Positions 2,176 to 42,655 of a DNA stretch of 64,000 nucleotides are shown one piece after another. The DNA is from Capitulum mitella. Its lineage: Eukaryota > Arthropoda > Thecostraca > Pollicipedomorpha > Pollicipedidae. Location of the stretch: NCBI GenBank assembly GCA_030062745.1, contig CP099843.1:19324997-19388996 (forward strand). The letters are read 5' to 3'. The translations under genes were made by a program, and so were the position numbers. Position 1 is the stretch's first letter. Every line of letters starts with the position of its first letter. The notes under the pieces are model-generated. The model saw only the letters and a program-made list of their open reading frames with translations. It was not told the origin of the DNA and did not search any database.

Positions 2176-2690
2176 CTATAGATCTTTGGTATCTAGCTTC
2201 GCCACTGACTGTTTGAACACCTTCGTTTTAGTCTTAATTTTTTTGCCTTTCTTTCCCTTCGTTTTTTTCTTCTTGATGGCCACCTCACTGGAAGAGCACT
2301 GCTTGCTGCGGGCTGCGACGTCGGCGACGAGGGCGACCGAGGCCGCCGCGCCGCCAGAGGGCGGCACGTGTCGGAGGCCGGGCTCGTCTGGCAGCGTCCT
2401 GTCCGGCCGGCCGGGTCCCGGCGCCGCCAGTGAGGCCGGGCCCGGCGCCGGCGCCGGCCGGCCCTCTCTGCCCTGCTGACGGCACCTGAGCGGCGAGTTG
2501 GGCAACAGGCCGCGGCCCGGCGGCGGGCAACGCTGCTCAGCGGGCAGCCGCAGCGACAGCCGCTGCGTGCTGGCCGCCAGACGCTCCACGCTCGACGGCG
2601 GACACCTGCCGACACAAACGCCGCTGACGACAGCTCGACAGCTGGCACAGGATCGGCAGCTGCCGGGGATACGTGTCGACACCGATGCGA
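2176..2690 (-). CDS. AGBL2/3-like: CCP gene terminal exon (acceptor and frame uncertain)
   Basis: The strongest acceptor (ttatttgtgtctcctcag) starts the exon at 2690; weaker ones are at 2659, 2641 and 2605. The frame ending at TAG 2176-2178 has the best third-position GC bias and ends in a Lys-rich tail ([16 protein letters not shown], then [14 protein letters not shown]). It fits acceptors 2659, 2641 or 2605 with the first 49-bp-unit donor, or acceptor 2690 with the third unit. Acceptor 2690 with the first unit stops at 2537, and with the second unit stops at 2193. No homology fixes the choice. Confidence 0.5.
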
Positions 2691-5600
2691 CTGAGGAGAC
2701 ACAAATAAATAAAAATAAATGCACAAATATGCACTAAAGCAAAAACAAAAAAATATATAAAATATGACCTTAAAGTTGTGGATTATTCCTTGCAATGAGT
2801 AAAGAGACGTAGGAAAAGAAGGAAGCTCTTCCGTGCCCCTGGATCCACGTCTCTTGGGACATTGCTCAAAGCCCACGGTGTTGCTCCTTTCGATTCAGCG
2901 TCAGATATTGTACAAATGCTACCATGTGCAACTGCTTTTTCCCCTGCAAGCCGTGCTCCTGTTATGTTGTCCAAAGTAAGGCGATAGTTCACCGTATTCC
3001 CCTTTCGCCGTCCGGGGTGGACGGAGCATTGATTACTGAAGACACCATTTACCCAGCTCGAGCTTTTTCGAGAGCCCACCAGCACTAAAACTTTCCCACT
3101 TGTTAATGGTAGTCTTTTCAAGGATACCAGCCACGTTACTGACAGCTAAATCCATATAAAGGCAAAACATGAAACGGAGTTTAGTAGCTGTTTAAGACTC
3201 AAGATATGTATTGAAGCATTAAAAGGCAAACCATGGAAATGATTAGGATGTTGTACGAGTGGCACCAGACCTTCCATCAAAAACTTGGCCATAATAATGC
3301 AAAATCAAGTCGAAATTATATCATCAATTCACGTTACGATCAATCAACTTCATTACGCTAATCAATCAAATCAATTACGCGAGACCAACGATTAACGTTA
3401 TGCTCTTCGTTGTCTGTGTTCGTATAGAGGAAGTGGATCAGATACTGACTTGTAAGAACTGTCCATCTCCAGACTGAGGAAGCAGATCAGACACTGACCT
3501 GTGTGAATTGTCCGGCTCCAGGCTAAGGGGGCGGGTCACACGCTGCCCTGTGTGAACTGCCCGGCTCCAGACTGAGGGAGCGGGCCAGACACTGATAAAT
3601 GTGAACTGTCCGGCTCCCGGCTGAGGAAGCGGGTCACACACTGACCTGTGTGGACTGTCCGGCTCCAGGCTGAGGGAGTGGGTCAGACACTGACCAGTGT
3701 GGACTGTCCGGCTCCAGGCTGAGGGAGCGGGTCACACACTGACCTGTGTGAACTGTCCGGGTCCAGGCTGAGGGAGCGGAGTCAGACACTGACCTGTGTG
3801 GACTGTCCGGCTCCAGACTGAGGGAGCGGGCCACACACTGACCTGTGTGGACTGTCCGGCTCCAGGCTGAGGGAGTGGGTCAGACACTGACCAGTGTGGA
3901 CTGTTCTCACTTGGTCCAACACCTAGTAATTTTGTTCCAGACTGAGGGAGCAAGTCAGACACTGACCTGTGTGGGCTGTCCGGCTCCAGGCTGAGGGAGT
4001 GGGTCACACACTGACCTGAGTGGACTGTCCGGCTCCAGGCTGAGGGAGCGGGCCACACACTGACCTGTGTGGACTGTCCGGCTCCAGACTGAGGGAGTGG
4101 GTCACACACTGACCTGAGTGAATTGTCCGGTTCCAGGCTGAGGGAGTGGGCCACACACTGACCTGTGTGGACTGTCCGGCTCCAGACTGAGGGAGCGGGG
4201 TCGGGACAGCGGCACCTGCAGTCTGGCCGCCGTCGGGAGCGCAGTCTGGCCAGAGGAAGCTGCTGAGGATGTTCGGGCCGAGCCGGGCCGGCCGGACGGA
4301 GACCGGAACTGAGCCGGCGAGCCGGCCCGTCCGCCCAGCTTCAGGCTGACGGCGCCAGCGCCAGCTGCTGATAGTGTCGAGGGCGACCGCGGGCCCGGGA
4401 CCGGCGAACGCCCTGCTGGCGATGACAGGCTCGACATCGAGGACGCCACTTTCGGCGACGATAACCTTGACCCTGGTGACGAGGCTCCTGGAAGAGCCAG
4501 TGCCCCCTGAGCTGGAACTGCCGGGGTCCGCATCCCATCTCCCTGACATGATGAAGAACTAATCGGCGACTGATCGTCCTTTTCCACCTGGAAAAAGACG
4601 CATGCATAGTTTAAAGAAATGTAACTAATGATGGCAACAAAAGGCAGTACGAGGCAAAATCGCGGATTCCAGTAAATGCAAGCTACGATCATGAAACAGG
4701 TGCACGAAAAGGTGACAAGGAGTAGCGCATGCAAACACCATCAATGCGGAGTTCTGCCAAATGCCTTAACGAGACACAACCGTTCACAACCGCACCTGCA
4801 GAATACGAGTGGTTACTGAGACCATGCCGTTCTCGCTGGGAGGCCTCAGGGTGATTTTGGTCAAGGTCTGGAGAGTCTTGCCTCGCTTCTTCCACGACAT
4901 CAGCGTCTGCAGCTTCTTACTCTTCCACTTTTTAGTGTTTTTCTTGCTTTTGGACCCAGAGCCCGCCTCGTCGGAGTCGTCCTCACTGAAATGTTGAGTC
5001 GTGTATGGAAGACAAGCTTCTGAACTGCAGATGGTTTTGGACGGTAAGAACAGGGGTCACCACCGACGGTAATGAAAGTACATGTACCGACCCCGTCCCC
5101 GCCCCATTATTTAGATCATCATACAGATGCTTTGTCGGAATGCATGACGACTGAGACCTGCTGCGTTTCTGTTAACCCTCGCACGTATAGGGGCTTCCGC
5201 ATAATCCGAGGGTAACGCTTGGTACGACCCTCCGGCCATTTCCACACCGTGCGTCGTAGAGCGTCGCAGAAGAAAACGGCGGGTTGCGCGCGACAAGATC
5301 TCGCGACTGGTGCCCCCTTTTAAGCTCTCAGATCAACGGGTGGCCTTCCAGGCCAGGTCAAAGGTCAAAAATCGGCAGAAAGCACTTTTTCGAGTCAAAG
5401 CACAAATGAGCCCCAAAGAATAAATGATGATGAAACGAAACGGATATCACAGTGGTCGTTTTGAGTGTTTGTTTATGTGTTCAGTTATGAGTCCATTCAA
5501 ATCATGTGTTCAGTTATCACGCAGTGTTCAATAATGAGTCCATCTGTACCCCACATGACTGTATTTTATCCATGGAATCCGATCCAGGTCGTCAGCTTAA

Positions 5601-8600
5601 ATGCGTTCTCGGAGCTGCAGAGGCACCAACACTATTGTCGAATGACAAATAAAGGCCATCCTAGGTCATCAATGGCCATCTTAGGTCACCCAAGGTCATC
5701 TTGTCCCAGTGACCTAGAATGACCTCGGTTTAGCTAAAAATCGTGACTCAGATGTGTTAAACATGTTTTTTTGGTTGCTATTCAACACAAAATCCAACTT
5801 TAGATATGCCGTGGTACTGTAGACTCATCATCCCGCGGCTGGCACCGCTGCAGAGTCGGAGCAAGTCAGGCATTCGTTGCATTCCTCCCCCTTTTGATGA
5901 AATAAAAGATAAATTGCACCAAATTTATGCCATCGATTCCTTAGAAGTCAAGCAGTCTGAATATACAGGTTGTTTTGTGGTACCTGTTTCCTATCGCACT
6001 TCCAAACGTGGCGCGAAAACGGATGACAGTTCCCGTTATGGCGTCATGGTTCGTTACCATCACAATCGTAGAGGAAACGCTTTTCACCATCATATGCGCA
6101 AAGGATGTCCCAAAGGGTACACTAAGCATCAGATGGATCAAATAAACCGTTAAAAAATTATCCTTGGAAAATCCTACGGGGGTTGCATCACCCCACCTAT
6201 ACGGGCGAGGTTTTAAATTTGGGAGAGCGTTACTAAACGATACATGGCTCATTTGCTTTCCTTTGTTATTTTTCGCATAAAGACGGATATTCGTTCTTTT
6301 ATTTTAGTATTTTACACAAGAATATTTCCAAGCTTGAACATTCCTCCTGCTGATCGCTATCATTACTGAGTGTTCCAAAGACAAAAAAAAAAATAGGAAA
6401 AGAGTCGAAGGGGCAAAATCATCTCAGAGTAGCGATTTCAAAATAAAGGCGTGCAAGCTAACGGATTTTGAATGAAAAGGCAAAACTATTTCAGTACTTA
6501 CATATCTTCTGGTGGAATTGCGTGATTTAATCCTATTCCCGGAGGGGTGGATAGTATGGCCGATTCTCGGTAGGGAGCGGCGGATTCACCCCTCCCCCGA
6601 GATCTCGAGAATTACACATCCGATTTCATCGCAACAAACGGCAATCGATTTGCCATGACGTAAACTACATTTTTTAAGAGTAATTTTCAAAATTGTGAAA
6701 GTGGCGGATACAGGGGGCAAAAAAGTCCAAACAAGGGATATTTTGGGCTTGTTATAATTCTGTTGTTTATGGACTGACGTCGATGAAATTGGCATGAATC
6801 GAGAGATTACTGATGAGACTTTCACCATTGGTACATACATTTGAAATTTTAGGAAAATTTAAAGGCATTCACGGGGCTTCGAAAATAGGGGGATAAGTTT
6901 TTTTTTTCAAAAACTGAATTAACAAGAAAGTTAAAAACATTTGCTTTAGCTTCTTTTAGTCATGTTATGCTGAAGAAGTACAAATCGTATAACAATGCTT
7001 GTATAATGTTAGCATAGGCGATGCCAGGTCCATGAAAAATGGGGGAACTGTCATGGTCACATGTTCTTCAGGTCAACTTACGACCTTTGACCTAAAATGA
7101 CCTCCAATGACCTTAGAGTCACTTGGAATGATCTTGTGTATTTCATATTGTATGAAAACGTTTCCAGTCATTTGAATTCACTTTGTTTCCGAGATTTCAT
7201 TTTACGGCTGTTGTGGTATAGGGTGAGCCATTGACATTTTAGGTCATAGCTCCGTGACCCGACCTGATATCAAGCAGAAACTTGATACACAAGTAGAGCT
7301 CATCCTTCTACGTCATATACATTCCGAGTCTGAAGTTTGAAAAAAACAGTGCCAAAATTACTACTATAAAACCAAATTTTGACTTTTAACCTTGAACTGA
7401 CCTTTTGTAGTGACCTCAGACGGACAAAATTGTATTCATGTTGCCCAACTATTTACCTCCACACCCATAAAAAGTTTCAACTTCAATACAAAAAAACGGT
7501 ATTTTTGACAAACATTTTCCTTTCCATTCAACAGGACCAAAATGGCCTGAGGTGCCTCCCAAAATGGCTGTCTGTATCCGCCCCCGAGCAAAATAGAATT
7601 ACGGAATTTGGTTGCAATGCTTAAAATGAATAGCTAGAAAAAGTCACCAAGGTTCGTGAAGCGGCATAAAAAAACCATGGAGAGCAAAAAACCCGAAGGG
7701 GGCGGATTCAGCCCAGCTGCCGGGAATAGAGTTAATCCTACGTGGGTGCCTTATTATTGACATGAAAGAACACACACAAACAAAAAAAAACGCTACAGCT
7801 GGGCTGCTCAACTTCATTTCTATGCTTACTGAAGACTGAAGTCTCCTCACTGAGCCTACGGACTTGATACAATTGTGTTTGTTGTAGCAAATATAGTTGC
7901 GTAATTGTCTTTGCTCCACACCACAGTAATCTCATGCTCATGTAAATGCCAACGTTTTTGTAAACATTTGGGATTTTTTCTTTTGTTTATGAAACAAAAG
8001 AAAGTCATGTGCCAGTTTTCCTTGTACAGTCTTTATAGTTATCTATAAGTTATTTAACTGCTATCTTGTAAAACTGACTTTACAGCCATGTCTGTGCTTC
8101 ATTCGTCATTTGTCTGTAACAACTTGAGAGGTCATAGCCTCATCTTTGATGACGATATACTGTCAGGCATGTAGGAACGCGAAGAAAAGTGGGAGGACCA
8201 ACCGTCCACGAAGGGCGCCAACCCCGAGCAGGGGCACCATCTATTTGGAATGGAACTGGTAGACTGCTTACATATTTACGGATACAAAGATATATACATA
8301 CGTATATAAATATATAAATATATATATATATATATGTATATGTATGTATGTATATATATCAATGCATTTTTATCCTTTGAAACATGTACAGGGACATGAG
8401 CGGTGCGAAGAAATCGGATTAGATGAGCTGCGTTTTTGCTCGTGACGATGTGATGTTCAATTTCGAACTTTTGAATTAATTTTTTCTACTATTTTGTTTG
8501 CTCCTACTGACTGCAACAACTGCGTCACGTCTGATTTTTCCCCATAAAGCCTGCCCCATCCGGCTACCAAAAGTAAAAACAGTCAACCAGGGTAAAAGGT

Positions 8601-11600
8601 TTTTAGGTGTGTCAGTGTTCTTGAAATAGTGACGAAGAAGACAGCCGTCATTTGACCTTCTTTAAGTTTAAATTGTAAGCTATAAGGACAAACAATAAAT
8701 CACATCTCCGGGTAAAAAAACTGTATATTTTTCCAGCTAAGGGTTAGTCTCATCGAGTGTAAAAATCGAACGCATAAAGGGGAAATAAACATGCACACGA
8801 GACTGGTCTGTGCGGGACGCCTACCTCGCAAAGCGTGTATGTCCTGTATGGATGCCAAGTCCCGTATGGGCGCCTGGTTTGTAGAGGTGCACCAAATACA
8901 TGAAAGGTGCCTGATCTTTACGGGGCGCCTCGCTCACCAAGGGCGCCGATCTGTATGGGGGACGCCCTTACAGATCAGGCCCCGAGGGGGCGCCTGATCT
9001 GTATGAAGGGTGCCTGATCTATAAGAGACACCTGCATCATAGACGTGTCTGGTGTGTGAGGGGAAGCAAATTCTTTAGGGGCGTCTCATCTGTGCGAGAA
9101 GAGCAGCTGACTGGCCTTTATGGGGCGCCGAACATGTGAGGGTTACCTGACCTGTACAAGAGCGCTTATCTGTAAGGGGCCACGTGTCCACGAGGGAGTA
9201 GTTGATCAATACATGGGGAGGGAGCGCCTGGAGGCTGATGGTTGCTAAGGACGTGAAAAAGCCTTCCCCCAGCAAAAGAAAAGAAAAAGAAAAGGAGGCA
9301 GGAACGGATTTTGGCATCTCTGTAGGATCGGGTTCGAGAGATGTTTTTTTTATCGAAGCCCAATTTTTGCTGTGCCGTAAAGGGAGCGCCCGCATCACCG
9401 GCGATAGGTGCGGATGACATGTCCCCCTCCCCCCGGTAATTATATCCATGCATACTGTCACTGTCGCATCCTACTATGTTCTGGGATTACATTTAGACAC
9501 TGACACTTGTAAAACAGAAGACAAATTGAAACTGTCCACAGACATCTGGCGGGAAACAAAGTAGCACCACGCCTTTTAATTTGGAGCTCGATTTCTATAA
9601 CTGCCGGTTCAAACAAGCAGGTCCTGCATCACCCACATCCTGTTCAACCACAGAAATGGAGCAACCCGAGTCTGACGTGAACGGCCGCAGCGGTAGGTAA
9701 CGGCACAAGTACCTGGACGACTCGGAACCCTCCGCAGGTTCCGCGTAGCCGTACTGCTCTTTCAGGGTGTCCATGATCCGCTCTCGCACCCGCTCCTACG
9801 CCGTCTGAAACGGAACCAGCACAAAACTGTAACTGATCGCCTGCGACTCGGTTACAAAGGGCGCGGGGCGCGAGTGCCAGGTTTTCCGCTGTTCTTTTGT
9901 CGAGTGTCGTGAGCACGTTTTAACAGCACAGAAAATTCAGGGTTCTCTGTGACCCTCACGTTTCGCATCGCACCCCTCTCGGCACTTAAAAGCGAGGATC
10001 CGCATTTGCTGGTCTCATACTGTTCATACACACTTCCAAAACATGTAAACTAGAGGAATACCGTCGGGATAGGTTCGCACGAAACGGCCAGGAAAATACA
10101 GAACCAACCACTTACTTAGAGTGCATTAAAAGACATCCATTATCAATTATAACAGTATGCACCTCGAAATAGCTTGGCTTCGAAGTGCATGGCTGCCCAC
10201 CCATACCCAAACACTTGCACGGACCCGTACGCACGGGTTACACGTTTTGACATGAGAGTGTGCACTGGAGGGGCGGGGCAACGCGTTCCGATTTCAGGAT
10301 TTTAATACAACGCCTCATCTCTTGGCTTTCAAAACGCGAAGAAGGTAGAAAGCACACTTTTATAAGGCGGAGCATTTCTTGACAAACGCGTTAAAGCAAG
10401 AAGATATCCTGATCATCTGCAATGGTAAGTCATGTCTTCCTTAATCTGTCCAGTTTGGACAAGCGATGGTGGCAATAATGACTATTGACGAACCCCTACC
10501 AGAACGTTGTCAACAAACCCGACTTCACCACTTCGAAGTTTATAAGGTTTACTTAAATTTTCTTCGAATTATTCAGGACTTTGATTTAAATATATCCAAA
10601 ACTAGTTTCAGTCCCGTTTAATGTCCAGGACAAGACGCCAAAGCTCCTGGCAGTCAATATCAAATTCCCACTAAGCCGTCTGGGAAACGTGTGAACGAGG
10701 CACAGTCATGGTAGCAGTAGCATAACCATTTCTGTAATAGAAGAAACTCTATAACATTTGTCGGGAAGAAGGAAAAACTTTAAAGCTCTCTTGTACTTAC
10801 CAAGAAGTCATTAATCCATGCATGTGTAGTGAAGTGAAATGCCAGTTAATTCAAAGACCATCGTTGAAACTATGCATTATTGCAAAAAAAATGCAAGGAT
10901 AGGGTGTAATGTACAATGAGTTCACCACACTTGGCAATGCAGTCACAACAAAAAACCAGAAATAATTTGCCACGAACAAGAAAATCATGTGAAAGTACGC
11001 AAAAGGTAGCTAGAGTACTTGAATCGGAAAGTGCTGTACTCAGGGTCTTTCGTACGTTCATTGCCAGAGGACATTTCACATGTTTTGTGCACAACAATTC
11101 GCATTATCGCACGATGTTTTGTGCACATTTAAGCCCTTACATAACGTAATTCACCACATGCAAATCATTCCGTCATATCCAATTATAACCCCGTCATCCA
11201 CGAATAGCTGAACATACTCCGCATCGCAGCATCCAGGGACGCCCTTGACTCGGCGGGGCTTAGGGGCGCACCGACTTCGAGGTCATTCGGCATTGACTCG
11301 GCGTAGGCCGACGGTCGGACCGTCTCCGTACCTTGAGGGGCGACGCGTCGACGTACTCGAGCAGAGCCTCACAGAAACGCTGCCCGATCAGTTCGTAATC
11401 GTGCGCCCTGTAGTGCGTGCCGGCGCGCGCCCGCAAACTGGAGCCGGCCGCACTCGCCTCCAGCGTGTAGGCGTTGGTGATGCCCATGGCCCACATGACC
11501 ACCCGTCCGGTGCCTTCCTTGGACTTGTGGACCGTGAACTGGCAGCTGTCAAAGTCAAACTGCCAGCGGTACTTGTCAGACAGGCGAAACACTGCAAATA

Positions 11601-14600
11601 TTGTAAATCTTCGGAGACGGTATCAGACGTGGTCGGAACGCGCAACCCAAACACGAATTTTTGCGAGAACCATGGCGGCATTTTGTCATAATCGTTTCAA
11701 AAACAGCATGCGTGAAAAGGTCGAGCCAGAAGTAGGGAATTAGCTTTAGAGGTTACCAAACGATGGATTTTGTTGACATAAGCATGGTTTTAGCCTGCTA
11801 TTTGGCAAGATGTTTTACAATAAAATGTGCCTATGCGTACGGTTGCCTTCCTTTACGCTGTTTCCTAAACAAAGTGGCTATACTGTTACCAGTAGTCTTT
11901 TTTTAACTTGATCCAAATGCTTTGCTACAGGAGCTTTGGGATCACAGTCAGCGCTCAGCAGTGCTTGTTGCACGGACTCTGATCTCTTCACCCGATCGCG
12001 CCATTCCAGGTTAACGGCATAACGTGGAGGCGAAAGTTTAACGGGCCGACATGAGCGACGCAGTCGTGCGGCAGCCAATGTCTCCGTCTATAGGTCAGCT
12101 GTCAAGTGTCTGCGAGGGAAATAGCGAGCACCGACGCGACTCAAACCCAACTGGCCAGGACGGGGAGCGGTGGCAGACGCTGTACCAGTTGAACTACCGA
12201 CACGCCTCGGATCTTCATCAGTCTTCATAGTTCACCTCCGCTTTTGAGACTTACGGACAGTAGTCAATCGACTCAGAAAGGAAGGTAATAGCGTGCATAC
12301 ATAAATCAGAGATGAAACTCACAAGATTCCTAGCCATTCTGTCCAGGAGAAAAGGGAAGACCTTCTCGGTGAGGTAGCGGCTTGAGTTGCGCCTGTTCTC
12401 ACAGCCGTAGATGAAGGCGTTCTGTCTGCGTGAGTGTCCGTGGAAGTCGCAGTAGACAGTCACTCCTGTCTCCTCCATCAGTCTGTCCATAACAAGAAAA
12501 CCCTTAACTGATTGTTTTGTCAGCATTGGCAAAGCGAAAGCCGTCAAAGAATAAAAAAAAGACCAGAATGAGATGGCAGCAAGACGAAACAGCATGAGCA
12601 GCATTTCATTAACGATGTAGGTGCCTGCGCTGTCAAATGCTACTGAGAAACTGTTATCAGAAACACATTAACCCTCGCCGGACCGGCTTCGGGATCCAGC
12701 TTTGCCGAGTCCAGGGTTCATGAGCAGAGGTGAAAATAAGTGCCAACTCGGCAACGTACGACGGTGGAAATTGATGCCCTCCGGCCATTCTCCGTAGTGG
12801 AAATATAGCCTCGTAGACTCGGACCACACCAGCTGGTTGTTGGTTCCCAGCCTCGTGTAGGTATTATTCACAGACTTCCCGAATAAAATAAATGACACTC
12901 TCCGATTTAACCAAATCACACAAATCGATATGAAGAACTTGCAGTTTACTCCCCATTCATCCTATTCCCCCGAGGTATCCCGAAAAGCAAGAAGGGTTTT
13001 CCGTCTGTAAAGGCATTCCTCGACGTTAGTCATCAAAAAACTCTTCTTGCTCAAACCGGCAACGTTTTACCGGAAGTAGCCCATGATGGAAGTCGGTGGA
13101 AGTGCTTGTTACGAGAAACTAGACCACTACATGTCAAATTTGTGTGCCGTACCGATGAAAAGTAAGTTTTGCTGCTATGGCAAACCACGAAGATCATGCT
13201 TACATTCGTAATATATTTCTCTGAAGCCATAACTTGCGAAACGTAAAGGTAAAAAACTCCCAACGACGGTGGACAAATGGTTACCAGAAGGCTATGACGA
13301 AACAATAAATGCTATTCATACCGAAACTTTAATACTGGGCACAGCATCATACAATGCAAGAGGGCGGTCAATTTAACAACGCAAAGTCAGGAGAAATGTT
13401 CATCGTTTTTGATTCTCAAACAAAAAAAAAGTTTTGTAGTGTGTAAAACGACCATCCTCATCATCTTCAGGCATTTGAAATTATCAGAACAGGTATCCCA
13501 TCTGCTTTGAAAAATTCCAGAACGGACGTGGATTACCTTTCCCGTATTGGTATTTTCAGCCCTATTTCCGTTCCCATAGCGCTAGGACGCATTGCTGTAT
13601 GGGGGAGCTTACTCGCCCCCCACCCCCCTGAGTTCTCGAGGACTAAAGCCCGATTCGACTGCAGAAAAAACAGCACTCCATTCGCCATGACTTTAACTGC
13701 ATTTTCATAAGAATTCTAAAAATCTTGTAAGGGGAAGGAGGGCGGGAGGGGCAGAAGTGAGAACGGGCATCTTTTTACCTGATGCAGCTTCTATGTTTAT
13801 TGACCGATGTTGATGTAACCGACATGCGGGGGGTTAATCGACGGGATTTTTCCCTTCGCCTACCTTGGTGTTTGGTTTTTTAGCATTGGATCGATGGGAC
13901 CCTTCGTGTTTAGATTTTTGACGAAATTCATAGGCATTTAAAGGGCTTGGAAATTGGTCAATATATTTTTTTCTTGCCATATCAAAATAAAAATAACAAA
14001 TCTTTTTAGGTTTTTACTTGCCATTTTTTTCCTAAGAAATACAAATCGTATTACAATACTGGTATAATGCTAGCAAGGTGGTGTGAGGGTTACAGAAAAG
14101 GGAAGACTCCCATGTTCGGAATTACATCGGCTTAATTTGTGGTCTTCGACCTCAAATGACTTCAGATAACCCCAGTCATATAAAATGGCCTTAGATTCAT
14201 TTCATCGTGTTTGAAAACGATTCCAGTCATCTGAATTGACTACATTCCTCAATGCCCTATTTTTGACGGTCGTGATATAGAGTAAGCTCGCGGGCATTTT
14301 AGGTCATAGTTCTGTGACCTTATCTGATGTCAAACTGAAACTTAAAACAGAAATGGAAAAATTATGCGAGGTTATCTATGTTTTTTGTTTTTCATTTTGA
14401 AAATCAGCCCCAAAAATTATACATCAAACAAAATTTTGAACCTTGATTTTGACCTGACCGGGTGACGGGGTACCTCAGGTCAACAGAAGTATGTTTGTGT
14501 CCTTGTGTAGTTATTTACCGATACACTCAGATAAAATTCCGTAATCTATCTAAAAACTTTGGCATCCATCTTTACTTCTACCTTTACTGGTGCTTAAGGT

Positions 14601-17600
14601 ATGTCTCAAAAACTTGGCCTGGTTCCGCCTCTGGTCAGATAAATCCTGACTGAGTGAAGACAGTCTGAAAAAATGGAAATGGCGAGCAAAAACGAAGGGA
14701 AGAGTTTTCCGAAAATCCCTCGCCCTCAAACTGAAATAGGGTTAGGGGCGGTTCCAGGACTTTGCCAAAGAGGAAATTTTTAAAGGCGCCAAAACGATAT
14801 CGAAGAGGCACCAACATCGCACCGAAAGGGCACCAAAATCCAGCCGTAAAGGCACCAAAATCGATTTAAAATGCTGAAATCACGCGAAGCGTTCATTTGT
14901 ATGTGATAGGCGACGTCAAATCGAATCACGAACGCATGTTGACCCCTAGTTTCTTGAAAGCGGGATGCCCACATTATTTATGGACCTATTGTTTTACACC
15001 TGTACTCTATTATACCTGCTCCCTCGATGTTGCAAGGGTGCCTTTTAATAGAACAGCGCTCACGTCCTATCACAAGAAGGTGCGATGTTACATGTGTGTT
15101 CTGACAATACGACGCTTTTGTGTCCAGGGACAAAACTCGTCCGCAAAAATCGCATCAAGAAATAGTCTGAACGTAAGACCTGGCTCTGTGCCTCTGATGG
15201 ACAAGGCAGCCATTCTAGCAGAAGGGGGCCTATTCCTAAAACGTTGGTGCCGCCTCTTCGATGTGACTAGGACGTTATTTTGAAGTATAAGGTGTCATGG
15301 TCTTTCAGCGGTGTGCCTTTCGGGACGTCTTTTGAATGACGTCTTTTGAAAGGACGTCTCTACTTCGTCGCAGAAGCGTCTCTTTAGTACCACGGTAACC
15401 CCTCTTGTCCGACAGGCAACCCAGATTCCGAAATTGACGAAATATTCCATCACATGGGAGCTGGCTTGATGTCAAGGGGCACCTTTTGAACGCAGGATCC
15501 ATACTCCATCACAGAGGCGCCTTGCTGAAGTCACAAGGTCATCGTTTCAATGACAGCGCAACCATACTCTCCGCAGGAGCGACTGCTTAGTGTCGCAGCG
15601 GCGCCTTTTGATGAACAGGTTGGCCAGAAAACTTCACAGGGGCGCTCTCGTGATGTCACGTGGACTTTTGGAACGAGAGAGAGTCCATGCTCCATTGGCA
15701 CGCTAACCCGCCGAAAGCTGGTTAGCGCGCCAAAATGCTAAGGAGAGAAAGAGGCGGCCTCCTCTCTGGCCGCCGTCTCCCCCTTAGATCCGTCCCTGAA
15801 AGTGGTCCTCGTTTCCTTCAAAAAAAAAACTACGATGAACCCCTAAATCAATATAAATTGCACTAATCATGGCCTTTCCACAGTCCTATCATTTTGACCC
15901 GTTTTGTTGCCGATTTCCAAGGCTGAGCATCTGAGCCAAATACTACAACGAATCCTTTACAAAAACAACTATTCGCGGATACAGGCTGATTCCAGCCATT
16001 CGTTTCTTCATTAAAATATCTTTGGTTCTTTTCCTGGCACATAGAAATTATTCAGCTTTTCAAATGCCAGTACAAGTGGAAGCCACCATTTCTTGGAATC
16101 GTCAGTGCAACACAAATAATCCTGTAATTAAATATTACACAATGCAAATGTCTGACAGTGGATGAGAACAACGAAACTGAAGCCGTTTCTGGCACCATCA
16201 ATAATTTTCGGAACCTTCCATTCTTGCCAAATGAAACAAGTAACGAAATTTCCACCAGTCGAAACCAAAGATTCCCAGGGGGATTTTCTTTTTAGCAAAA
16301 GACGTCCCAAGCCACACTTCCCGTTGTCCCCACTGCCTAACCTCCTGACAAGCAGCTTCAGGTGCCAGACGGCCGGGTACAGGTCCCGGTGCGTGTGCTT
16401 GAACTGTCGGTTCATGTCTCGTCCGGCCAGCGAGCAGCGCGAGTTGCCCACGATCACTCCGTCTGGGTTCAGCATCGGCACGATCTTGAAGACAAACCGC
16501 TGCCGCAACAGCTGAAAATGGCAAAAACCAGTTACCTTGTTGCAGAATTAGAAACCTAAGCGGAGATCACGTTTCATCACCTCTCCATTCCAACTGAATG
16601 TCCGCACAAAAACGGATTTGAAGCGGCGAAATCCGCGTCGCAGAACTTCTGATCACTGGTCCTGGTCCTGGTCACTCCACGCGGAGCCCGAAATGCAATA
16701 GAAAGGGTCTTATACCCAAGTTTGCTCCTACCATGGAATTCAAATTTTGGGGTTAGGTAAACCTGATCTATCCATATCGAAATTAGCAAGCTCCAGCGAA
16801 ATTAACGTCGCCAGGCTGAGGGTCGGGCTAAAGAGAACCACTCTCAGGCTCCCTACGGAAAGCCGATAGACGAAACGACGCAGAGACATGAAACTCGGGA
16901 TAGCTTTGCATACACCATTATAACACCCTGCATCGATTTTTAAACTCAGGGCTACCTGAAGTTATTGGCCTACAGCAGGTCAAGAAGGGGCATGTTCCAA
17001 AAAAATTAAGTCCCATAACATTTCATGAAATGAATTGATTAACATGAAGTATGACATATTAATAGACCATGACGAATGACGAAGTTCCGCTATCTCGATG
17101 TTTTCCGAAATGTCCAAGTCACTGATCTTTGGTCAGCTTTACTTACGGTCTTTTTACTTTTGCTACTGGGGTTGGAGGTCTGGTTCGGCACTTTTGAAGC
17201 TTGAACCTTGAAGCCCTGGTGCTTCTCAAGCCCTTTGCACCTCTTGACCTATGAAATGACCTTGACCCACGTTTTATTCCAAATTTTCAGACCCGGACCA
17301 GAATAAAATTTCCCTGTTTACAGCCTTGGAATGTTTTTTAGTTGTCATGTGCTTCAGAATCATTAATATACGGTAAGAACTTACTTGTCAGTGCTGAGCC
17401 AATCCCATTTGACCCAGGCTGACATGGGCTGGCCTTTTGCAATCTTCTGCTCGTTTTCAACACGAACATGCTTGTATGGCCACAAGTAATAAAGACTGCA
17501 CCATAGACTTCTCTACACCCAGACTCCTCTGTACTACACAGGGCTATGACTACACCTACGCCTTCTTGCTGTACATTTTGTACTGCCCCAGTCCTCTTAT

Positions 17601-20600
17601 TTTGGGTCCCCAAAATAACGACCTCTACCATCGTAAAAAGAGCTTCCAACGAAATATCAGGCTTTTACATTGCGGCCGTGCCCGCCGCCCACAATGTAAA
17701 ACCCGCCCGACCTACGTGAAAAATGTTTTAGGACACCGGGTTCATGATATAGAAGGAATATTACATAAACCAATGTAACAGGTATATCGTGTCTGATCAC
17801 TGGTAATGCGACAGATGATGCGTCATATTTCATAATCGCCTGAAGTGTCTACCTTGACCTAGGTAGACCTTGATCAACCTTAATATGGATGGTGAAGACT
17901 TAATATGCGTGCCTAACACATCCGGAACGTATTCCAGCCAAAACAAATTCCTCTTCATTCGGAAAAACGCGACTCCTCTGTCCTGACCTTACAAAACGGG
18001 AATTTTGCCCCACTCATTTTCGGCGTTGTTTGAAATGATCAAATCTGTCATCAAGTGTAGCCTTTTTCTGGCTTCTGAAACGGGAATTTTACCCCTCCTT
18101 TTTCGGCTTTGTCTGAAATAGTCAAATCGATCATCAACCTTTTTCTACAGAAGGGTTCGTTTTAATTATCATTATGTGGAGCTAGTTTTCAGAACATGAA
18201 ATACTTTTTATTTGCATTCGCATATGTTTGTGTCAAGCCATTTGTAGATTATTAAATGTCTGGAATAATTAGAAACAGTTTTAAATAGTTCCCATACAAA
18301 ACAGCCGCGCACTGATTAAAATGGCAAATGTAGTAAGCATCCCAACATATGGCATACTTCTGATTACCTTTATGACATTATCCAGGCTTGTGTTGAGCGA
18401 AAATCTCTTTACATTTACCTGCCCTGATTTGCCCTGCCCTGCCCTGTCCCTTGCAATGTTCAGTTTCCCCAATGCCGAAATCCTGATTCGCCTTCGCGTG
18501 GCGTCTCATCTGTTTGCGTTAAATGCCTTTCCAAGACAAGACCTGCACATGGTAAGGATGCCGGATTTTTGTTTAATCCTATTCCGTGCTCCTGACTCCT
18601 ACGTACGATTCCGAGCTGGAGGAGGGAAGATTCTGCCCCCCCCCCCCGCGCCTCTCTTGTGATCTCGAAAACTACCGGTCCAATTTCCCAGCGGAAAACG
18701 GCGTTCGACAGCCTGTAGCAAGATGTACATTTCTAGAAAAAAATGAAAATCTGGAAAGCGAGGATATGGGCCAAAATAGGGTATAAAACAGGTTTACTAA
18801 TACGAGTTTCCTGATCACATCTGATGACCGACTTAGCTTTAGTTCATGTCATTCTACCAACAATTGACTGGTCTACCACATATGTTAGGAAGGTCGATTT
18901 TCAAAATTCTTCGGCGTACCCAGGGCACATAAAAAGGGGGTATACGTTTTTGGGAAATATTAATTCATTCTAAACATATCCTGGGCCTGGCGCGCTAAAC
19001 TGTATTAAAAAATATTTCCATATGTGTCACATATATATCATATGTATCACATGTATCGTATATATATATATATATCGCATATATCATATACATCATATTG
19101 TATATCTGATAATGCCCATAGGCGAACCCAGTTACCAGAAAAAGCGAGGAAACTTTCTACGTGGCAAACTGAATTATAGTTTCTCAGGAATAGGAAGAAA
19201 TAAGGCCCCTTTTTACATTGCCTGGAGCCGCCTCGGATCTATGTTTGCACTGAAGTATATGGCATTTGATCATAACATAAGTGGAACCAACAAAACCAAT
19301 CGCACAGATCCAGGTGTCTCTTAGGCCCACTAATGCGAACCCTAAAACCGGTGCCTGAAGACCCTCCTGTCAGAATATGGCAGATGAAATATACGCCCAA
19401 ACTATGATAAATATGTCTATATCAAACGTTACCTTTGTTTTATTCATAAAAATAAGTCATACTTTGTTACAAATAGGAAAACTTTACACCCTTTTGTCCC
19501 TGGATACACCACTGACCAACATTTTCTGAAAAATACTTGAAAGTGTGCAGATTACAGATATTTGAATAATTAAATTGTCCACGACATCATAAAGGACATC
19601 AAAGTGGCACATCACCACGTCGAAGTGCGCAGTCTCCAGAAAGTGCGATATTCCTCGAACATGCCTCCCTGAAACGTGTCCTGGAACCGCCTCTGGAGAA
19701 GGTGAATTTTGGGGATTTTGTCACAATACGTGAAAAACATATGTTGGAAGAGTCACCAAGTTTCGTATACCAGTCTCCAAAACCTCAGGAATGGCGAGCA
19801 AAAAAAAAAAAAAAAACGGGGGAAGGGCAGAATCTGCCTCCCCTCCAACACGGAACAGGGTTCAGATTCTCTCATTTTCTACTTAATTTGGTTGAGGGTA
19901 GGTCCTCAACACGATCTTCTTCAGCAGATCTTGATTGCAGAAACTGACCGCACCCAGAGTCGAAAACGACCGTCTCGTAATGTTAACCCTCGCCGTACGG
20001 GAGAACGGGTGGTTGTCACGCCGCATGGGGTTTTCGTAGAAAGCCAGTTAAAAGACTACGTCAGAAATTGGAATTCACGATTTCGGACGTAACTTCTTTT
20101 ATATGTCTGTTTCAACACATTTTCCAGGGTTGTGCCAGGCCACTACGAGTTCTGACGTCATAATGAAGGGCCTGAAAGCCTTTTCTAGATCTAAGCTCCT
20201 GTATGTATCCTTCCTTAACAATCTGACAACATATGGAGCATGAAGCCAAAAACTGACGTTTTTGGTGTCAAGATACACCAAAAAATTGTTACCCCAAGGA
20301 AAATTTTATTCTCATAAAGTCGTCATTGCACCATCATCAAAGAAGGAACATCATCATTTCGACAATCACTTTCATGTTACAGGAAAAGCGCCTATGATGT
20401 TCCGTATTTTCGACACCCAAGGGCAAAGAACTGCAGCAGGTAGCCATTGTCAGTGACAAGAACGGAAATAAGTCATCTGTGTGAAAGCCAAAGTTCGGCT
20501 GATAACAAGCAGAAACACAAATTTCCTTTCTCGAGCATTTTACTACTGGCCGCTTTGTAAATGATACGTATTGTGCATTTTGGAAACTGTGTGCACATTA

Positions 20601-23600
20601 TGTTTGCAAATGATCTCTCTGCATCATAGGATTTACAAATGCATGAGAAACTGAGCATGGATCGTGTTGAAACTACTGAGAGAAAGTGAACTGCCTGACA
20701 TTCACAAATGATAGCAAACTCACAGAGACGGAGATAGATGAATGCTTGCTTTAAATGTTCTTTGAAGGCAAACACCAGACAATGACGATATATATGACTG
20801 CAAGTTACTCACACAAATTAAGCGTCCAGAAAGCCATTTTCTCTCCACTTAGTTGCATTAAATGCATCCAAGTGAAGGACCCTACGCCGTAAGGAAACAC
20901 ATCTTACCACTCCACGTTGTTCCGTTCCAAACATACTAAATCTGGAAGGTCCCGATAGATGTTCTTACATGGCGCATTAATTTGCTGTTGTTTCATAAAT
21001 TATACGTACCATATCTTTCTTCTAAGCACGGTGCTGCATACTCCATCAGACCCACCAGATCTAACTATGTTCTTCCTAAAGACACTCAAAGCGCAAAACG
21101 TAGTCGTGGGCCAATCAGCAATACCAGCCAAACGCATACTTGCTAAGGCACTAGACAATCAATACAGAACTCATGTGAAACGAGTCTTACAGCTTATGCT
21201 TCCTACGAAGGCCTGACGCCTGACGAGATACCAGGACTTGACTCAAGGTACAGACGCTTGGGTCCAAGACGTTGTGCGTCCTTATAACAAACGAACAAAC
21301 GGCTTATGCTTGATAGCTAGCACTGCAGCTGTCTGTGTTCTAAAACGGGACTGTCGGCAGGTGAAACAGCATTGCAGTAACATTATAGAACTCTGCCTCT
21401 GTAGTTGCGTTACATAAGCGAAGAACTGCGAGGTGCTAAATAGATCCTGATGGCATGAAACTAATTTATAAGCTCTTTATCAAGCGGACAGCGTTGACTG
21501 TTCGAATATCGGCATGAAACTCCTTTTGGTTCTCAGTAACTGACATGTTCAGCGAAAAGCTTGGAAGCCAAAGGTCAGGTAACAGCCCAGGACGAGACAC
21601 TGCACGTGACGGAACCCAGGGGGCGAGGCAAACATTGCCGGGAATCCGGGCAACCTTGCTTAAGACAGAAGTTAACATCATATTACTCCCCTGATACAAT
21701 CGGAAACGAGAGATTCTGTTTGTAGTCCGATAACTTAACAGGCATGCATTGCATTAGTAATGCATGCATTGCTAATACGTTGAGCAGCTACGGTGGATTC
21801 CTGGCACTGGTAAAGACCTATTCACATATTAATCCGAACTAAACATACCTGTTAGCTAGTGTTCACCCTCGCCGGACAGGAGGGATTTTCATTCGCACCG
21901 ATGACGAAGTGTTGGGTACCCCCTTGCCATTTGGTTGCTAAGTGAGTTAGCACCACGCGTCAAAAAACAGTCGATAGCTCTGTGCCCAAGGAATTCGACG
22001 GTATCCTTTTTAATCCTCTTAGGTCAACCTGTGACCTTCTAGGCCAAGATCAAACTTTATGACTGGGAGTTATAAGTCGATTTTCCACAGTTAAAAACGA
22101 CACATTTGGGGTGGAATCGTCCTAAAATCGTCTTCTTTAACATATTCAGCGCTAAAAATTGGGATAGGAACGTTCCAAGGCAAAAAGAGTCATCTTAAGT
22201 CACTGACCTCGTTTGACTCTAAAAAAGGTCATTGACTTATCTAAAGTGACCTGTTCACACGAGGACTACCATTCTAAACCAACTTCATTCCCGTCATCGG
22301 CCGTCTGTGCATACCTATTGCCCTAAAACGGTAAGAAAAACGACATTTTGCGCAAACGTCGCTCTACAAGCCTTCAGTAATGACGTCATAACTCTATGAC
22401 CTGGGATGATCTGGGTCAGTCTTTTTCCCAAGGCATGGCGATGAATGTACTGTCAGCTATGCCAAATTTCACGGCGCTGTCCTTCGCCGTTTTGCCGTGG
22501 TTCCGGAACACTGATTGGGGAATGTGGCATCTACCCCCCCCCCCTCCTCCCCTCCGGTGAGATTGGTTGGTTGGTTATTGGGGCTTAGGTGAGCACCGAC
22601 TAAAAGATCATTCGGCGCCCAAAAGAGGTAAGCCCCTAAATCGCTTTGTCCGAGTCATTAGTACAGCCACAGCAGTACGCAGTACAAATTGCCCAAACAC
22701 GATTGCATACTTTTTTACCTGTCGCCATCTTTATGCAGTAGTCTATTGCAGGATTCCATCACTTCACGGGCATTCGTATGAGCCAGGTACTCAGCTGACG
22801 AAAAAAGACTGTTTTCGGAGGTCATGACTGGTGAACCACTTCCAGTATTTGTTTCCCAGATCCTCCGTGACTAGGTGTCGATTTCTGCGTCAATCGGTGT
22901 CCATTAGGACACTTGGTTATTTGTTAAAATGGGTCCTGGAAAAAGTTGGAGGCACTGCTCCCCTCATCAGTACATTGGGGGCATGTTTTCTCTGCCCACC
23001 ACCCTTCCCCCCCCCCCTTTCCGGACCCCATTATTTAAGAAAGTACTAGTTGGCCGCAACGTAAGGAATTGCATGAAAAACGAAATCATGATTTTCCTGA
23101 ACCCAAACCAACTGCTTAAATATAGGGGAAGAGGGGTATGACAGGATGTCCTTCCCAATCTTTGCTACTTAATGCCTCCTCACCAGGTAAAAATTCATAA
23201 AAGGGTTAAGGCGTATGGTGCGATTGCAGACGACCAACGCCCAACACTAAGAATAAACACCATGGCGCGTCCTGCTGTGACTGTTTCAGCGCGAATTACC
23301 TGTTCGAAGAAAGGATTTCAACATAGACTGCGGATTTTATTGCGATCCCCTTTGTAGGATTTGGGTTGGATTACAGTTCTTTTGGTGCCAAGGATTTGGA
23401 ACTGGATTGTCAGTCTTTCAAAAGAATTTTGATGGTCCCTGTTGTAGTGCGGAACTGAGTATTGTTGCATTTAGGTAAGGCAGATAGAAGTAGCCTTAAC
23501 CTCACAATATCCGATGAAATGTAAACAGACTGTTCCACCTCTATTTCGACCACGGGCCTTCCTCTTGTTTTTTCCAAAAAGGAAGAAAGCAAGGAAGGAA

Positions 23601-26600
23601 AAAACGTTTTCCATGAACTCTTTGGAAAACAAACCATTCGTGAGGAAGGCACGTGGCCGACTTGTAAGATAAATGAATTGTCTTGTTTTTTTCTGACATT
23701 ATCAGCTTAATGCTACTTCTACATTATCTAAGTGGAAATAGTACCACATTGTCTGCATAATCTTGGCATAGGCGGCGCCAGCGGCATGACAAAGGGAGAA
23801 CTGTCATGGTTGCGTGTTCATCATGTCAACTTTCACCTTTCGCCTCACATGATTTCTAATAACCTCAAAGTCGCATGAAATGGCCTTGCGTTCATTTCAC
23901 AGTGTTTGGAAACGATTCCAGTAATCTGAATTGACAACTAACAGTCCTGTTTTGGACCGTCGTGATATAAAATGCGCGCGAGGACGTTTTGGGTCATGGC
24001 TCCGTGACCCGGTTTGATATCCAGCTGAGGCTGAAACTTGAAACACAGGCCATTGTGCTGAGTCATATGTGTTCCTGATTTTCTATTTCGAAAATTAACA
24101 TTAAAAATACGCTTATAAAGCCAGAGTTTGACTTTGTCTTGACCCGACTTTGTGAAGTTGCCTCAGATAAACAAAAATATTTTAGTATTGTCGTCCAGTT
24201 GTACACCTATACATTCATTAAATTCCATGATAGAAACTGTTTCTGACAACCATTTTTCATTTACCAGCACCAAATGTGGGTTGGTGCCTCCCAAAAACTT
24301 GGCCTGACTATGCCCTTAGAAAACATAAGATTATGAAAATTTGACGTAATGCGAACACAAATACACAGGAAAAGGGATGAAGTTCCGAGAAGCTGCTTCA
24401 GAAGCCTAGAAGTGGCGAGTAAATAAACCGGAGGGGGCTTCTGAAGTCCTCCCCATACGGGAGCCGGGTTAAGGTGAGTTAACGAATAATTCAAGCATTA
24501 GCGCTGAGCCAAGATTCACAAATTATGCTTGACTTATTGCGGTATCTTGTGCCCTACACAAATGGTTCGTACATTTTAGCGCCGTAACCAACGGTTCCTG
24601 CGGTGCTAGCGAAACTCTGGGGAGAGCTACACTGAATTTAACCCTATTTGATCCCAATCACCTTGAATGCCACAACCCAGAGACGTCAAATGTCTACACA
24701 AGTTTCTCTAGGGCTACACCTACCCCATACATTTCGTGGCCTTAGTTCTGCTAATTTCCGAGATTTCGGGGAGTGGGGGAAGTAAAACTGACCCCATCGC
24801 ACCCGAACGCAACATATTTCACAGGTCACGCGTGCGAGGGCTAATTGTTTAACGGTTAAAGAAATCGCAGATCACTACAGAAAGAGGAATGTTTGTGTTC
24901 CTGCCAGGAAGATGGCATTTTGAAGTAGACTGCGGGTGCCACGTCACGCACTACTTGAGATTTCAAATAACCGTGCGTGCTCATTTCATTGGGTACTATT
25001 TGAAACTCAGAAATCTTCGAGGATGCAAAGAAACATTGGGGTACCGAGGTATCCACAACAGAAAAGAAAACCACACCCAGGGTTATTATGTCCGGAAAGT
25101 ATAGGGGGCATTTATGATCCGTACTGCGCATTGGAGTTAAGTATTGGCCAGACGGCCTAGCCTGTCCATAGCCGCATAAACTCTAATGAAGCCTATTTTC
25201 GAGACGTGAACTGCTGCGTGCGTGAGACTGAAACAACAGTGTCAAAACAGCACCACGCACCATTCATTAGCACCTCACGAACAGACGTGACCAAAAGTCA
25301 GCCTGGTGTGAGTTCCTCGACACGAAAGCAACATGATGGATTCTGAAGACATTCAAACTTTCCTGTCTGGACCGCAGGATCCATATCACTGTCGTTCTGT
25401 TTCCCCGTATCAGGACCAATAAACAGCGACCTCAGGACCCTGAACAAACACAGAGCGCAGGTACTGGCCGAAGGCGCGGCCCCGTACTCCGTACAGCGGT
25501 CCGGAATCACAAAAGAAACATCTCTGAGCGCAAGTGATAAAAATGATACGAAAATGAACTTTTTACTGGCAAGAAAAATGACATAACAGCTTTTCTACAT
25601 CAAATGCGACAAGAAATCCCTCTTTTCATCTAAAATGAACACTTACGGCTCGGATGGAGAGACCTCTCCTTTTGGACCCGACCTAGGTGCGCCACAGGGA
25701 CACGAGAAACGCACCTCCTATTTGACAGAGGTTCGATTGTTGCCTACTCAGTGCTGGTTCGACTGCCGGTGCTGGTCACAGTTTGGACAAGTGAGCTGCA
25801 GCCAGTTATTTGTGATGCTGCTGTACTCGACTCTTCCGAACGGAAAATTGAAGATTTGCAGGCTACCAGTCGGAAGTGAACAGGCTAGTGCCGTGTCCTG
25901 TAAAGAACCTCGCTAAACCTCTACCAAAGTATGTTTACCTCGCTGAGGCGTCGTCATGTGAAAGAAGGAGGGGGCTGCGTCAGATCTGGTCCAGCCTCTG
26001 CGCCGCCACTGACCTCAGCGGTCCTGTTGTGTGAGGTGAGGAAGTTGAGGACGCCTCGCATCATCCAGGAGGCCTGGGTCTCGGCCGGATGCACACGGGC
26101 CGTCAGCACCACCGCCTCGTTTGCTCTGGAACAAACAGGTGATCACCTGGTGGGGGGGGGGAAGGAGTGACGAGTCGAGCACATTTCGAGGCGCCATGGT
26201 GCGACCGCTTGTATTGACACATCCTTACCACGTGTCGACCTCTTCCCTGTTCTTGACTTTGACGTCGCATTTGTTCATTCACACATTGAAAGTGCATCTA
26301 AACCACTCTCCTGTTGGCTTTCGACCACGTCGTGTAATAATTCGAAATGGAGCTTTCAGTAGTTCCGGAATGTTTTGAAAAATGCAAGCTGTTGGAACGG
26401 AATGTCACAATACGGCATCCAGCAAAAGTTCAACATTGTTGCTTACGTCAAGCCTAGAGATCACGATGGCTATAGGTCCATTTTTCGAGATCAATATATA
26501 GGCCAAAGCAGGGGTGTCGATTTCTGTAAGCAACTGGGAGGGGGCGAGCCGAAGGCCCGACAACCTAACCTCAGAGGAGCCCAAATGGGGGTTTCTCCAC

Positions 26601-42357: not shown

Positions 42358-42655
42358 TTAACCCTATTCCCGGAGGGCTAGCGATATGGCCAATTCCCGG
42401 TAGGGGGGAATTGCGCCCCCCCCCTTCTGAGATCTCGAGAACTACTCGTCCGATTTCATCGCAACGAACGGCAATCGATTTCCATGACGTAAACTACACA
42501 TTTATAAAAAAAGCTTCCAAAATTTGGAAAGGGGTGGATAAAGGGTTGAAAAGTCAAAATTGGGGATATTTTTGCATTTTTTATAACTCCGTTGCTTGTG
42601 GGCCTATTTCGATGAAGTTGGCGTGAATCGAGGGATTATGGATAAGACTTCTACA
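42358..42655. mobile_element. piggyBac-like MITE, family A, left-end fragment
   Basis: It starts TTAA then CCCTATTCCCGGAGGGCTAG and keeps GAGATCTCGAGAACTA and GCAACGAACGGCAATCGATT. It is truncated at about 42655, where unrelated sequence begins. Confidence 0.75.

What the first reader, a model, noticed from the sequence alone, without database searches (positions are those of the whole stretch)
3430..4212. A 5' splice site amplified into a 49-bp minisatellite with about 15 copies
The last coding bases and donor CAG|GTCAGT of the CCP exon at 4587-4163 form the first unit of a tandem array; 13 units keep an intact GTCAGT. Because 49 is 1 mod 3, each later donor shifts the frame by one. With the strong terminal acceptor (2690) the first, second and third donors lead to stops at 2537, 2193 and 2176, giving three different C-termini. 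The array is almost free of stops in the coding direction, so no choice ends translation early. This would be a length-variable array controlling the tail of a tubulin-modifying enzyme.
Basis: partly seen in the sequence, partly recalled or inferred. Interest (0 to 1): 0.9.

Follow-up and report, generated by a model that had tools for sequence, protein, structure and literature searches.

The report
Barnacle splice sites amplified into minisatellites
In a barnacle gene for a tubulin-trimming enzyme, the end of an exon and its splice signal have been copied about 15 times into the following intron; the evidence says only the first copy makes a normal protein, and the same thing has happened in other genes of this animal, which would make it a natural test of how cells choose the right splice site among near-identical copies.

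Summary
The array is real: 15 units of 49 bp on the minus strand (4195-3434), 13 with GTCAGT. The gene is a barnacle cytosolic carboxypeptidase (Nna1/CCP2-like). The proposed C-terminus switch is not supported. A Pollicipes orthologue fixes the join: donor 1 (4163) to acceptor 2605, not 2690, giving one conserved tail ending at 2176. Donor 2 frameshifts. Donors 3 onward lie behind an in-frame TGA (4104-4102). The array holds 14 stop codons, about the chance number.

The same gene has a second, independent array of this kind at exon 4 (34 bp, 15 copies), where only donor 1 joins in frame. Across the genome, triple CAGGTNAGT arrays give 832 overlapping matches against 86 for the reversed motif. 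Of 29 arrays examined, 9 or 10 have a Pfam-coding exon just upstream in sense; antisense gives none. In 7 of 7 joins tried (CCP twice, DNMT1, SAC3, RAB14, PLK1, ASCC3) donor 1 joins the next exon in frame.

Best reading: the exon end plus its 5' splice site seeded the repeat; later copies are intronic decoys. Human IFI6 and ABCA7 are single precedents; the recurrence here looks new. No RNA data were available.

The parts
4163..4587 (-). CCP exon 13 (my numbering); its last 33 nt are the exonic part of repeat copy 1
   Evidence: Open frame [12 protein letters not shown] aligns with Pollicipes RSHSLEPDNPE|R
3434..4195 (-). Array 1: 15 copies of a 49-bp unit (33 nt exon end + 16 nt intron start), 13 with GTCAGT
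   Evidence: TRF; copies; GTCAGT positions; one match in the 477-Mb genome
4162..4163 (-). Donor 1 (CACACAG|GTCAGT), the 5' splice site supported by homology
   Evidence: Best of 87 GT donors tried with acceptor 2605 (393; next 381 at 4157, 364 at 4106)
4102..4104 (-). In-frame TGA met when the exon is read past donor 2; lies before donor 3
2176..2605 (-). Terminal coding exon, acceptor GTCGGCAG|G, stop 2178-2176
   Evidence: Best of 134 AG acceptors with donor 1; [22 protein letters not shown] against Pollicipes [22 protein letters not shown]
31168..31317 (-). CCP exon 4, whose last 24 nt are the exonic part of array 2 copy 1
   Evidence: tblastn with Pollicipes to YYPCQVTR
30642..31191 (-). 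Array 2: 15 copies of a 34-bp unit carrying CCAG|GTCAGA; independent of array 1
   Evidence: donor frames
29926..30070 (-). CCP exon 5, joined in frame only from donor 1 of array 2
   Evidence: Pollicipes tblastn hit
32564..32740 (-). 44-bp x4 intronic array ending 28 nt before the exon at 32535; possible 3' splice-site relation, weak
   Evidence: 18/33 match across the acceptor, 37 of 20000 shuffles as good
2176..46406 (-). Extent of the CCP/Nna1 gene by homology (the exon at 46406-46320 is tentative, E 0.001)

Best explanation
The array was born by tandem duplication of a short stretch that spans the end of CCP exon 13 and its 5' splice site. Copy 1 is still the real exon end and its donor (4163) is the one that makes the normal protein, joined to acceptor 2605. 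Copies 2 to 15 lie in the intron as near-identical decoy donors. Using them would cause a frameshift or a premature stop, so selection keeps the first donor and largely tolerates the rest. This is one case of a recurrent process in this barnacle genome, where exon-end/5' splice-site segments have grown into minisatellites in unrelated genes. Shown: the arrays, the coding origin of copy 1, the frame result. Inferred: actual use of donor 1 in RNA, and mostly passive tolerance of the other copies.
For: Copy 1 is conserved coding sequence in another barnacle, so the direction is exon to array. Donor 1 is the best of 87 GTs and acceptor 2605 the best of 134 AGs against the orthologue. Array 1 DNA found one match in the genome, itself (the tool warns that counts of repeats are lower bounds). 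Array 2 in the same gene has the same geometry, and only its donor 1 joins in frame. 2 of the 12 donors of this gene that were tested carry 3 or more nearby copies, against 0 of 12 acceptors and 24 of 1500 random positions. Genome-wide: 832 donor-triple matches against 86 for the reversed motif. Of 29 arrays, 9 or 10 have a Pfam exon directly upstream in sense; antisense 0 of 87 peptides. Flanks of 21 sampled arrays gave 4 matches among 126 peptides. Alignments run to the last residue before donor 1 for the PLK1, RAB14, ASCC3 and DNMT1 homologues. Donor 1 joins the next exon in frame in 7 of 7 joins tried, and for the five other genes the joined peptide aligns to the solved homologue over the junction with equal lengths on both sides, RAB14 at 48 of 48 residues. 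Unit length mod 3 among the 29 arrays is 13/9/7, no clear bias to whole codons.
Against: No transcript data. The donor 9-mer is among the most conserved parts of both CCP units (rank 2 of 49, rank 1 of 34), which could mean selection on later donors, though permutation gives 0.17 and 0.08. In DNMT1, SAC3 and RAB14 some later donors keep the frame, so minor protein variants there are possible. The Pollicipes tail is a database protein whose RNA support I did not see, and no second barnacle supports it (the A. amphitrite record diverges after exon 12). The search that found it used only the 2176 frame of the last exon, though one search then tested joins into all frames. Acceptor 2605 has a poorer pyrimidine tract than 2690. 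19 or 20 of the 29 arrays gave no Pfam hit.
Confidence: 0.82

Rival explanations
1. Array length tunes gene output: decoy donors draw off U1 or lead to exon skipping and nonsense-mediated decay, so longer arrays give less productive mRNA, as reported for the human ABCA7 VNTR. This can be true together with the best explanation.
For: ABCA7: the first GT of the VNTR is the exon 18 donor; use of the next unit's donor keeps one unit and is out of frame; exon 19 skipping rises with VNTR length and expression falls (passages of PMC5954066). Here later donors of CCP, PLK1 and ASCC3 give frameshifts or stops.
Against: No expression or genotype data here; in ABCA7 unit retention itself did not depend on length.
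Confidence: 0.3
2. 5' splice sites are preferred birth places of minisatellites in this genome (for instance through a mutagenic structure at the exon-intron border), not merely hit by chance in a repeat-rich genome.
For: About tenfold excess of donor-triple over reversed-motif matches, while the single motifs number 10 against 3 in the 200-kb sample and 1 against 4 in the window without its arrays; two donor arrays in one gene.
Against: Minisatellites are common here: 21 arrays in the 200-kb sample. Exonic repeats may be purged, so that survivors pile up at exon ends. Single-motif counts are small. The search for the exact CAGGTCAGT triple did not complete, and searches with dead donor motifs could therefore not be started.
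Confidence: 0.35
3. One reading: alternative use of donors 1, 2 and 3 selects three C-termini.
For: The phase arithmetic for acceptor 2690 is right for donors 1 and 2; later donors are intact.
Against: In-frame TGA at 4104-4102 before donor 3; conserved tail requires acceptor 2605 and donor 1; 14 stops in the array.
Confidence: 0.03
4. Each unit acts as an optional 24-nt microexon: CTCAG before it, GTCAGT after it, so any number could be included without changing the frame, repeating SLEPDSPHR.
For: 11 of 15 copies have TCAG and GT at the places that bound a 24-nt stretch; 24 is a multiple of 3.
Against: CTCAG is explained as coding sequence; the space to the next CTCAG is only 25 nt (74 nt to the one after); no RNA evidence.
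Confidence: 0.03
5. The repeat is a dispersed family that inserted at the exon end.
For: Many unrelated donor-bearing arrays exist.
Against: Array 1 DNA has one match in the genome search; copy 1 is conserved coding sequence; the other arrays listed have different units.
Confidence: 0.02

Closest known systems
Human ABCA7 intron 18 VNTR (PMC5954066, passages seen)
   Same: Array whose first GT is the exon's canonical donor; the next unit's donor is sometimes used and gives a frameshift
   Different: 25-bp unit starting at the donor; here the two CCP units include 24 and 33 nt of coding exon, and several genes are affected; no RNA data here
Human IFI6/6-16 minisatellite (Turri 1995; paper not held; seen as citation and one sentence in PMC4526556)
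   Same: Minisatellite supplying multiple splice donors; two downstream repeat units used as donors, giving three mRNA species
   Different: There extra donors are reported as used; here later donors of CCP break the frame. The 12-bp unit of IFI6 is recalled, not read
Intron gain by tandem duplication of AGGT segments, including the multiple 24-bp duplication in fission yeasts (PMC4974935, passages seen)
   Same: Tandem duplication of an exonic stretch carrying AGGT, with an intron spanning several copies
   Different: There a new intron is made inside an exon; here an existing donor is multiplied into an existing intron

Membership tests
5' splice-site minisatellite (ABCA7/IFI6 kind) | Tandem array in which the unit carries a donor and copy 1 is the exon's own donor | tested here: met
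   for array 1; for array 2 (by homology and frame, not RNA)
5' splice-site minisatellite (ABCA7/IFI6 kind) | Transcripts using one or more repeat donors | not testable with these tools
   No RNA data available
5' splice-site minisatellite (ABCA7/IFI6 kind) | Length polymorphism between individuals | not testable with these tools
   One assembly only
Cytosolic carboxypeptidase (CCP/Nna1, M14) | M14 carboxypeptidase domain sequence | tested here: met
   Pfam PF00246 E 3e-4 on raw frames, 21 bits, just below the 21.6 cut-off; PDB CCP5 4e-20; A. amphitrite Nna1 86% identity
Cytosolic carboxypeptidase (CCP/Nna1, M14) | Enzyme activity on tubulin tails | not tested
   Inferred from family only
   In-frame TGA before donor 3

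The most novel reading that the evidence does not exclude
In this barnacle 5' splice sites are a favoured birth place of minisatellites, in of the order of a hundred or more genes, including homologues of PLK1, RAB14, DNMT1 and ASCC3. The spliceosome must therefore routinely commit to the first, intron-distal member of a row of 6 to 22 similar donors. Array length would be a heritable, fast-changing load on, or dial of, splicing.
Probability: 0.45. Interest if true: 0.82.

Novelty: new variant of a known kind. Interest (0 to 1): 0.66.

Why it matters
How one 5' splice site is chosen among competitors is an open question, often studied with constructs of two sites (recalled). Here a genome appears to supply natural cases with up to 22 donor-like sites (ASCC3 homologue), where only the first keeps the protein. 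It would also give a mutational route by which exon ends feed repeat growth, and a model for human repeat loci such as ABCA7.

Tried and rejected

Acceptors 2733 and 2659: score lower (324 at best and 365, against 393).

RNA folding that hides the later donors: the GT of donor 1 is almost fully unpaired (0.99) at +/-80 and +/-150 nt, but several other sites of the array come close; at +/-40 nt it is 0.64 and seven sites are higher. In array 2 donor 1 is not clearly special. Inconclusive.

Selection on later donors by conservation: ranks high but permutation 0.17 and 0.08. Inconclusive.

Unit length in whole codons as a sign of in-frame use: 13/9/7 of 29, not clear.

Protein-family scan of pseudo-translations that include the repeats gave hits I take to be made by the repeats (Kelch, Spore_YtfJ); not used. 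Pfam scans of raw frames of 4000-23700 found only the M14 stretch.

Literature: searches (open-licence PMC only) showed in their listings no report of donor minisatellites in barnacles. Word searches in three barnacle genome papers (PMC8270832, PMC8917513, PMC11331182, passages only) found neither minisatellite nor tandem repeat in the main texts. Supplements not seen. PMC12783039 (passages) reports intronic minisatellites in earthworm metallothionein genes, without a donor role in what I saw.

Wanted but not obtained: genome-wide controls with exact and mutated donor motifs (machine did not complete), and a protein search for the L023 exon.

Full report
WHAT IS THERE. The minus strand of the window carries a cytosolic carboxypeptidase gene (CCP/Nna1, M14 family). 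Exons were found by Pfam (PF00246, just below cut-off), by PDB match to CCP5, by A. amphitrite Nna1 at 86% identity and by tblastn of crustacean, insect and Pollicipes homologues. The window lies in a 477-Mb assembly of 16 contigs, position C5:19324997-19388996; the closest proteins of the two searches are from barnacles.

ARRAY 1. At 4195-3434 there are 15 copies of a 49-bp unit; 13 keep GTCAGT. Copy 1 is made of the last 33 nt of the exon 4587-4163 and the first 16 nt of the intron. The array DNA had a single match in the genome, itself (the tool calls repeat counts lower bounds).

THE TRUE JOIN. A tail search found one relative, an 814-aa Pollicipes pollicipes protein. Its ...[35 protein letters not shown]... 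aligns without a gap to ...[35 protein letters not shown]... made by donor 4163 and acceptor 2605. That pair is best among 134 AG acceptors (with donor 1) and among 87 GT donors (with acceptor 2605); runners-up reach 377 and 381 against 393. The reading frame ends at 2176 with a lysine-rich tail (KKKKTKGKK, against RRKKTKGKK in Pollicipes). The query held only the 2176 frame of the last exon; one search compared joins into all frames with the protein so found.

WHY THE C-TERMINUS SWITCH FAILS. Read past donor 1, the exon frame stays open through donor 2 and then meets TGA at 4104-4102. Donors 3 to 15 are behind that stop. Donor 2 with acceptor 2605 gives a tail, counted from exon 12, of 244 aa instead of 348. 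The array holds 14 stops over three frames, near the simulated mean of 15.3.

ARRAY 2, THE INTERNAL CONTROL. Exon 4 of the same gene ends TACTACCCCTGCCACGTGTCCAG|GTCAGAGGTCA, and this segment is repeated 15 times over 31191-30642 with a 34-bp unit. Pollicipes has the same exon end (YYPCQVTR). Donor 1 joins exon 5 in frame. Donor 2 stops, donor 3 is out of frame, and donors 4 to 15 are behind an in-frame stop. Of 12 donors and 12 acceptors tested (the first exon's donor and the third exon's acceptor were left out), 2 donors and no acceptor have three or more nearby copies; 24 of 1500 random positions do.

GENOME-WIDE. The pattern of three CAGGTNAGT with 20-50 nt between gave 410 and 422 matches on the two strands against 59 and 27 for the pattern read backwards. 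Matches overlap within arrays, so they are not array counts. The printed list is cut off; it covers C1, C2 and C3 to 15.75 Mb (about 99 Mb). By my grouping it holds 29 distinct arrays with unrelated units, which scales roughly to 140 in the genome. In this list the base at +3 is C in 22, G in 5, T in 2 and A in none.

DO THESE ARRAYS START AT REAL EXONS? I fetched the upstream flank of all 29 listed arrays. For the 240 nt before the first donor, in three phases (87 peptides), Pfam gave 11 families at E up to 0.01: SAC3_GANP, Ras and Roc (one locus), COMP, RBD-FIP, Sec63, cobW, BAH, POLO_box, A_deaminase (two members), fn3. Nine loci are identified by single scans, three of them below the curated cut-off (BAH, fn3, A_deaminase). 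The RBD-FIP locus was not identified, hence 9 or 10 of 29. The A_deaminase match at L045 is split over two phases. The same stretches in antisense gave none. As a further control, both flanks of 21 minisatellites (period 15-100) in 20 loci of 10 kb at fixed places on C1-C10 (126 peptides, 42 flanks) gave 4 matches: three immunoglobulin-type families, probably one exon, and one carboxylesterase. One of these 21 control arrays (L016) itself carries a donor-like motif. PDB comparisons run to the last residue before donor 1 for PLK1 (7e-33), RAB14 (6e-22), ASCC3 (5e-23) and DNMT1 (9e-8); for SAC3 the Pfam match does.

FRAME TEST. Next exons were first picked by eye; Pfam did not find them (one search found only a later SAC3 stretch). 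Donor 1 joins in frame in DNMT1 and SAC3 and in RAB14, PLK1 and ASCC3, making 7 of 7 tried with the two CCP arrays; no join was tried for the other loci. The joined peptides were then compared with solved structures: RAB14 is identical over 48 of 48 residues, and PLK1, ASCC3, DNMT1 and GANP/SAC3 align across the junction with equal lengths on both sides. In PLK1 (6 donor-like sites) and ASCC3 (22) only donor 1 works. Later donors also keep the frame in DNMT1 (2, 7, 8), SAC3 (4) and RAB14 (2, 3), a result against a strict decoy rule for every gene.

MECHANISM. Shown by sequence: copy 1 is exon, donor 1 alone preserves the CCP protein, and the other copies fall in the intron of that model. Inferred: tandem duplication across the exon end, growth by slippage or unequal exchange, and survival because copy 1 leaves the mRNA unchanged. 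What makes the first donor win is unknown; RNA folding gave no clear answer. In human genes SRSF1 and hnRNP A1 are described as pushing choice towards the intron-proximal and intron-distal site respectively (passage in PMC5585400), so an intron-distal choice among many similar sites is a fair puzzle.

IS SEEDING PREFERENTIAL? The reversed-motif control suggests it. Against it, minisatellites are dense here (21 in 200 kb). Single donor motifs against reversed ones number 10 to 3 in the 200-kb sample and 1 to 4 in the window without its arrays, too few to normalise with. The search for the exact motif did not complete, so controls with mutated donors could not be run. I leave this open.

KNOWN KINDS. 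The human ABCA7 VNTR (PMC5954066, passages) is the closest: its first GT is the exon 18 donor, use of the next unit's donor is out of frame, and exon 19 skipping rises with length. The passage gives 14 and 2% for two alternative forms, the second of which I take to be unit retention. In many brain samples the alternative forms together outweighed the canonical one, so the first donor of such an array need not serve a gene well. IFI6 is reported to use downstream units. Tandem AGGT duplication as intron gain is described in PMC4974935 (passages). The single array is thus a new member of a known kind; the recurrence across a genome, with coding sequence inside the unit, is the new part, as far as the searches listed under Tried and rejected show.

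Noticed in passing
window 31191-30642: AGGTCA-N-AGGTCA (direct repeat of a nuclear-receptor half-site, name recalled) occurs exactly 6 times on the minus strand of the window, all inside array 2, and once on the plus strand (5355); half of it is the donor itself.
   Followed up: no
window 4114-3646: Six array-1 copies carry GGTCA-N5-TGACC, a short inverted repeat across the donor; copy 1 has TGGCC instead.
   Followed up: partly
window 62847-62969: (CCTAA)n array, 24.6 copies at 98%, the arthropod telomere-type repeat (recalled) inside a chromosome.
   Followed up: no
window 43965-44573: Weak reverse-transcriptase match (RVT_1, E 9e-5, below cut-off), minus strand.
   Followed up: no
window 2485-2288: A possible 198-nt intron inside the last exon: CTCAG|GTGCCG to TTCCAG|TGAGG, same phase on both sides; read by eye.
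   Followed up: no
29 arrays of the list: GTAAGT, the form closest to the usual donor consensus (recalled), is absent; C at +3 in 22 of 29.
   Followed up: partly
P0001: The A. amphitrite Nna1 record loses homology near the end of exon 12, so its last part may be a misannotated intron.
   Followed up: no
L055, L046 (ASCC3 homologue): 22 donor-like sites over about 1.25 kb, the longest donor row seen here.
   Followed up: partly
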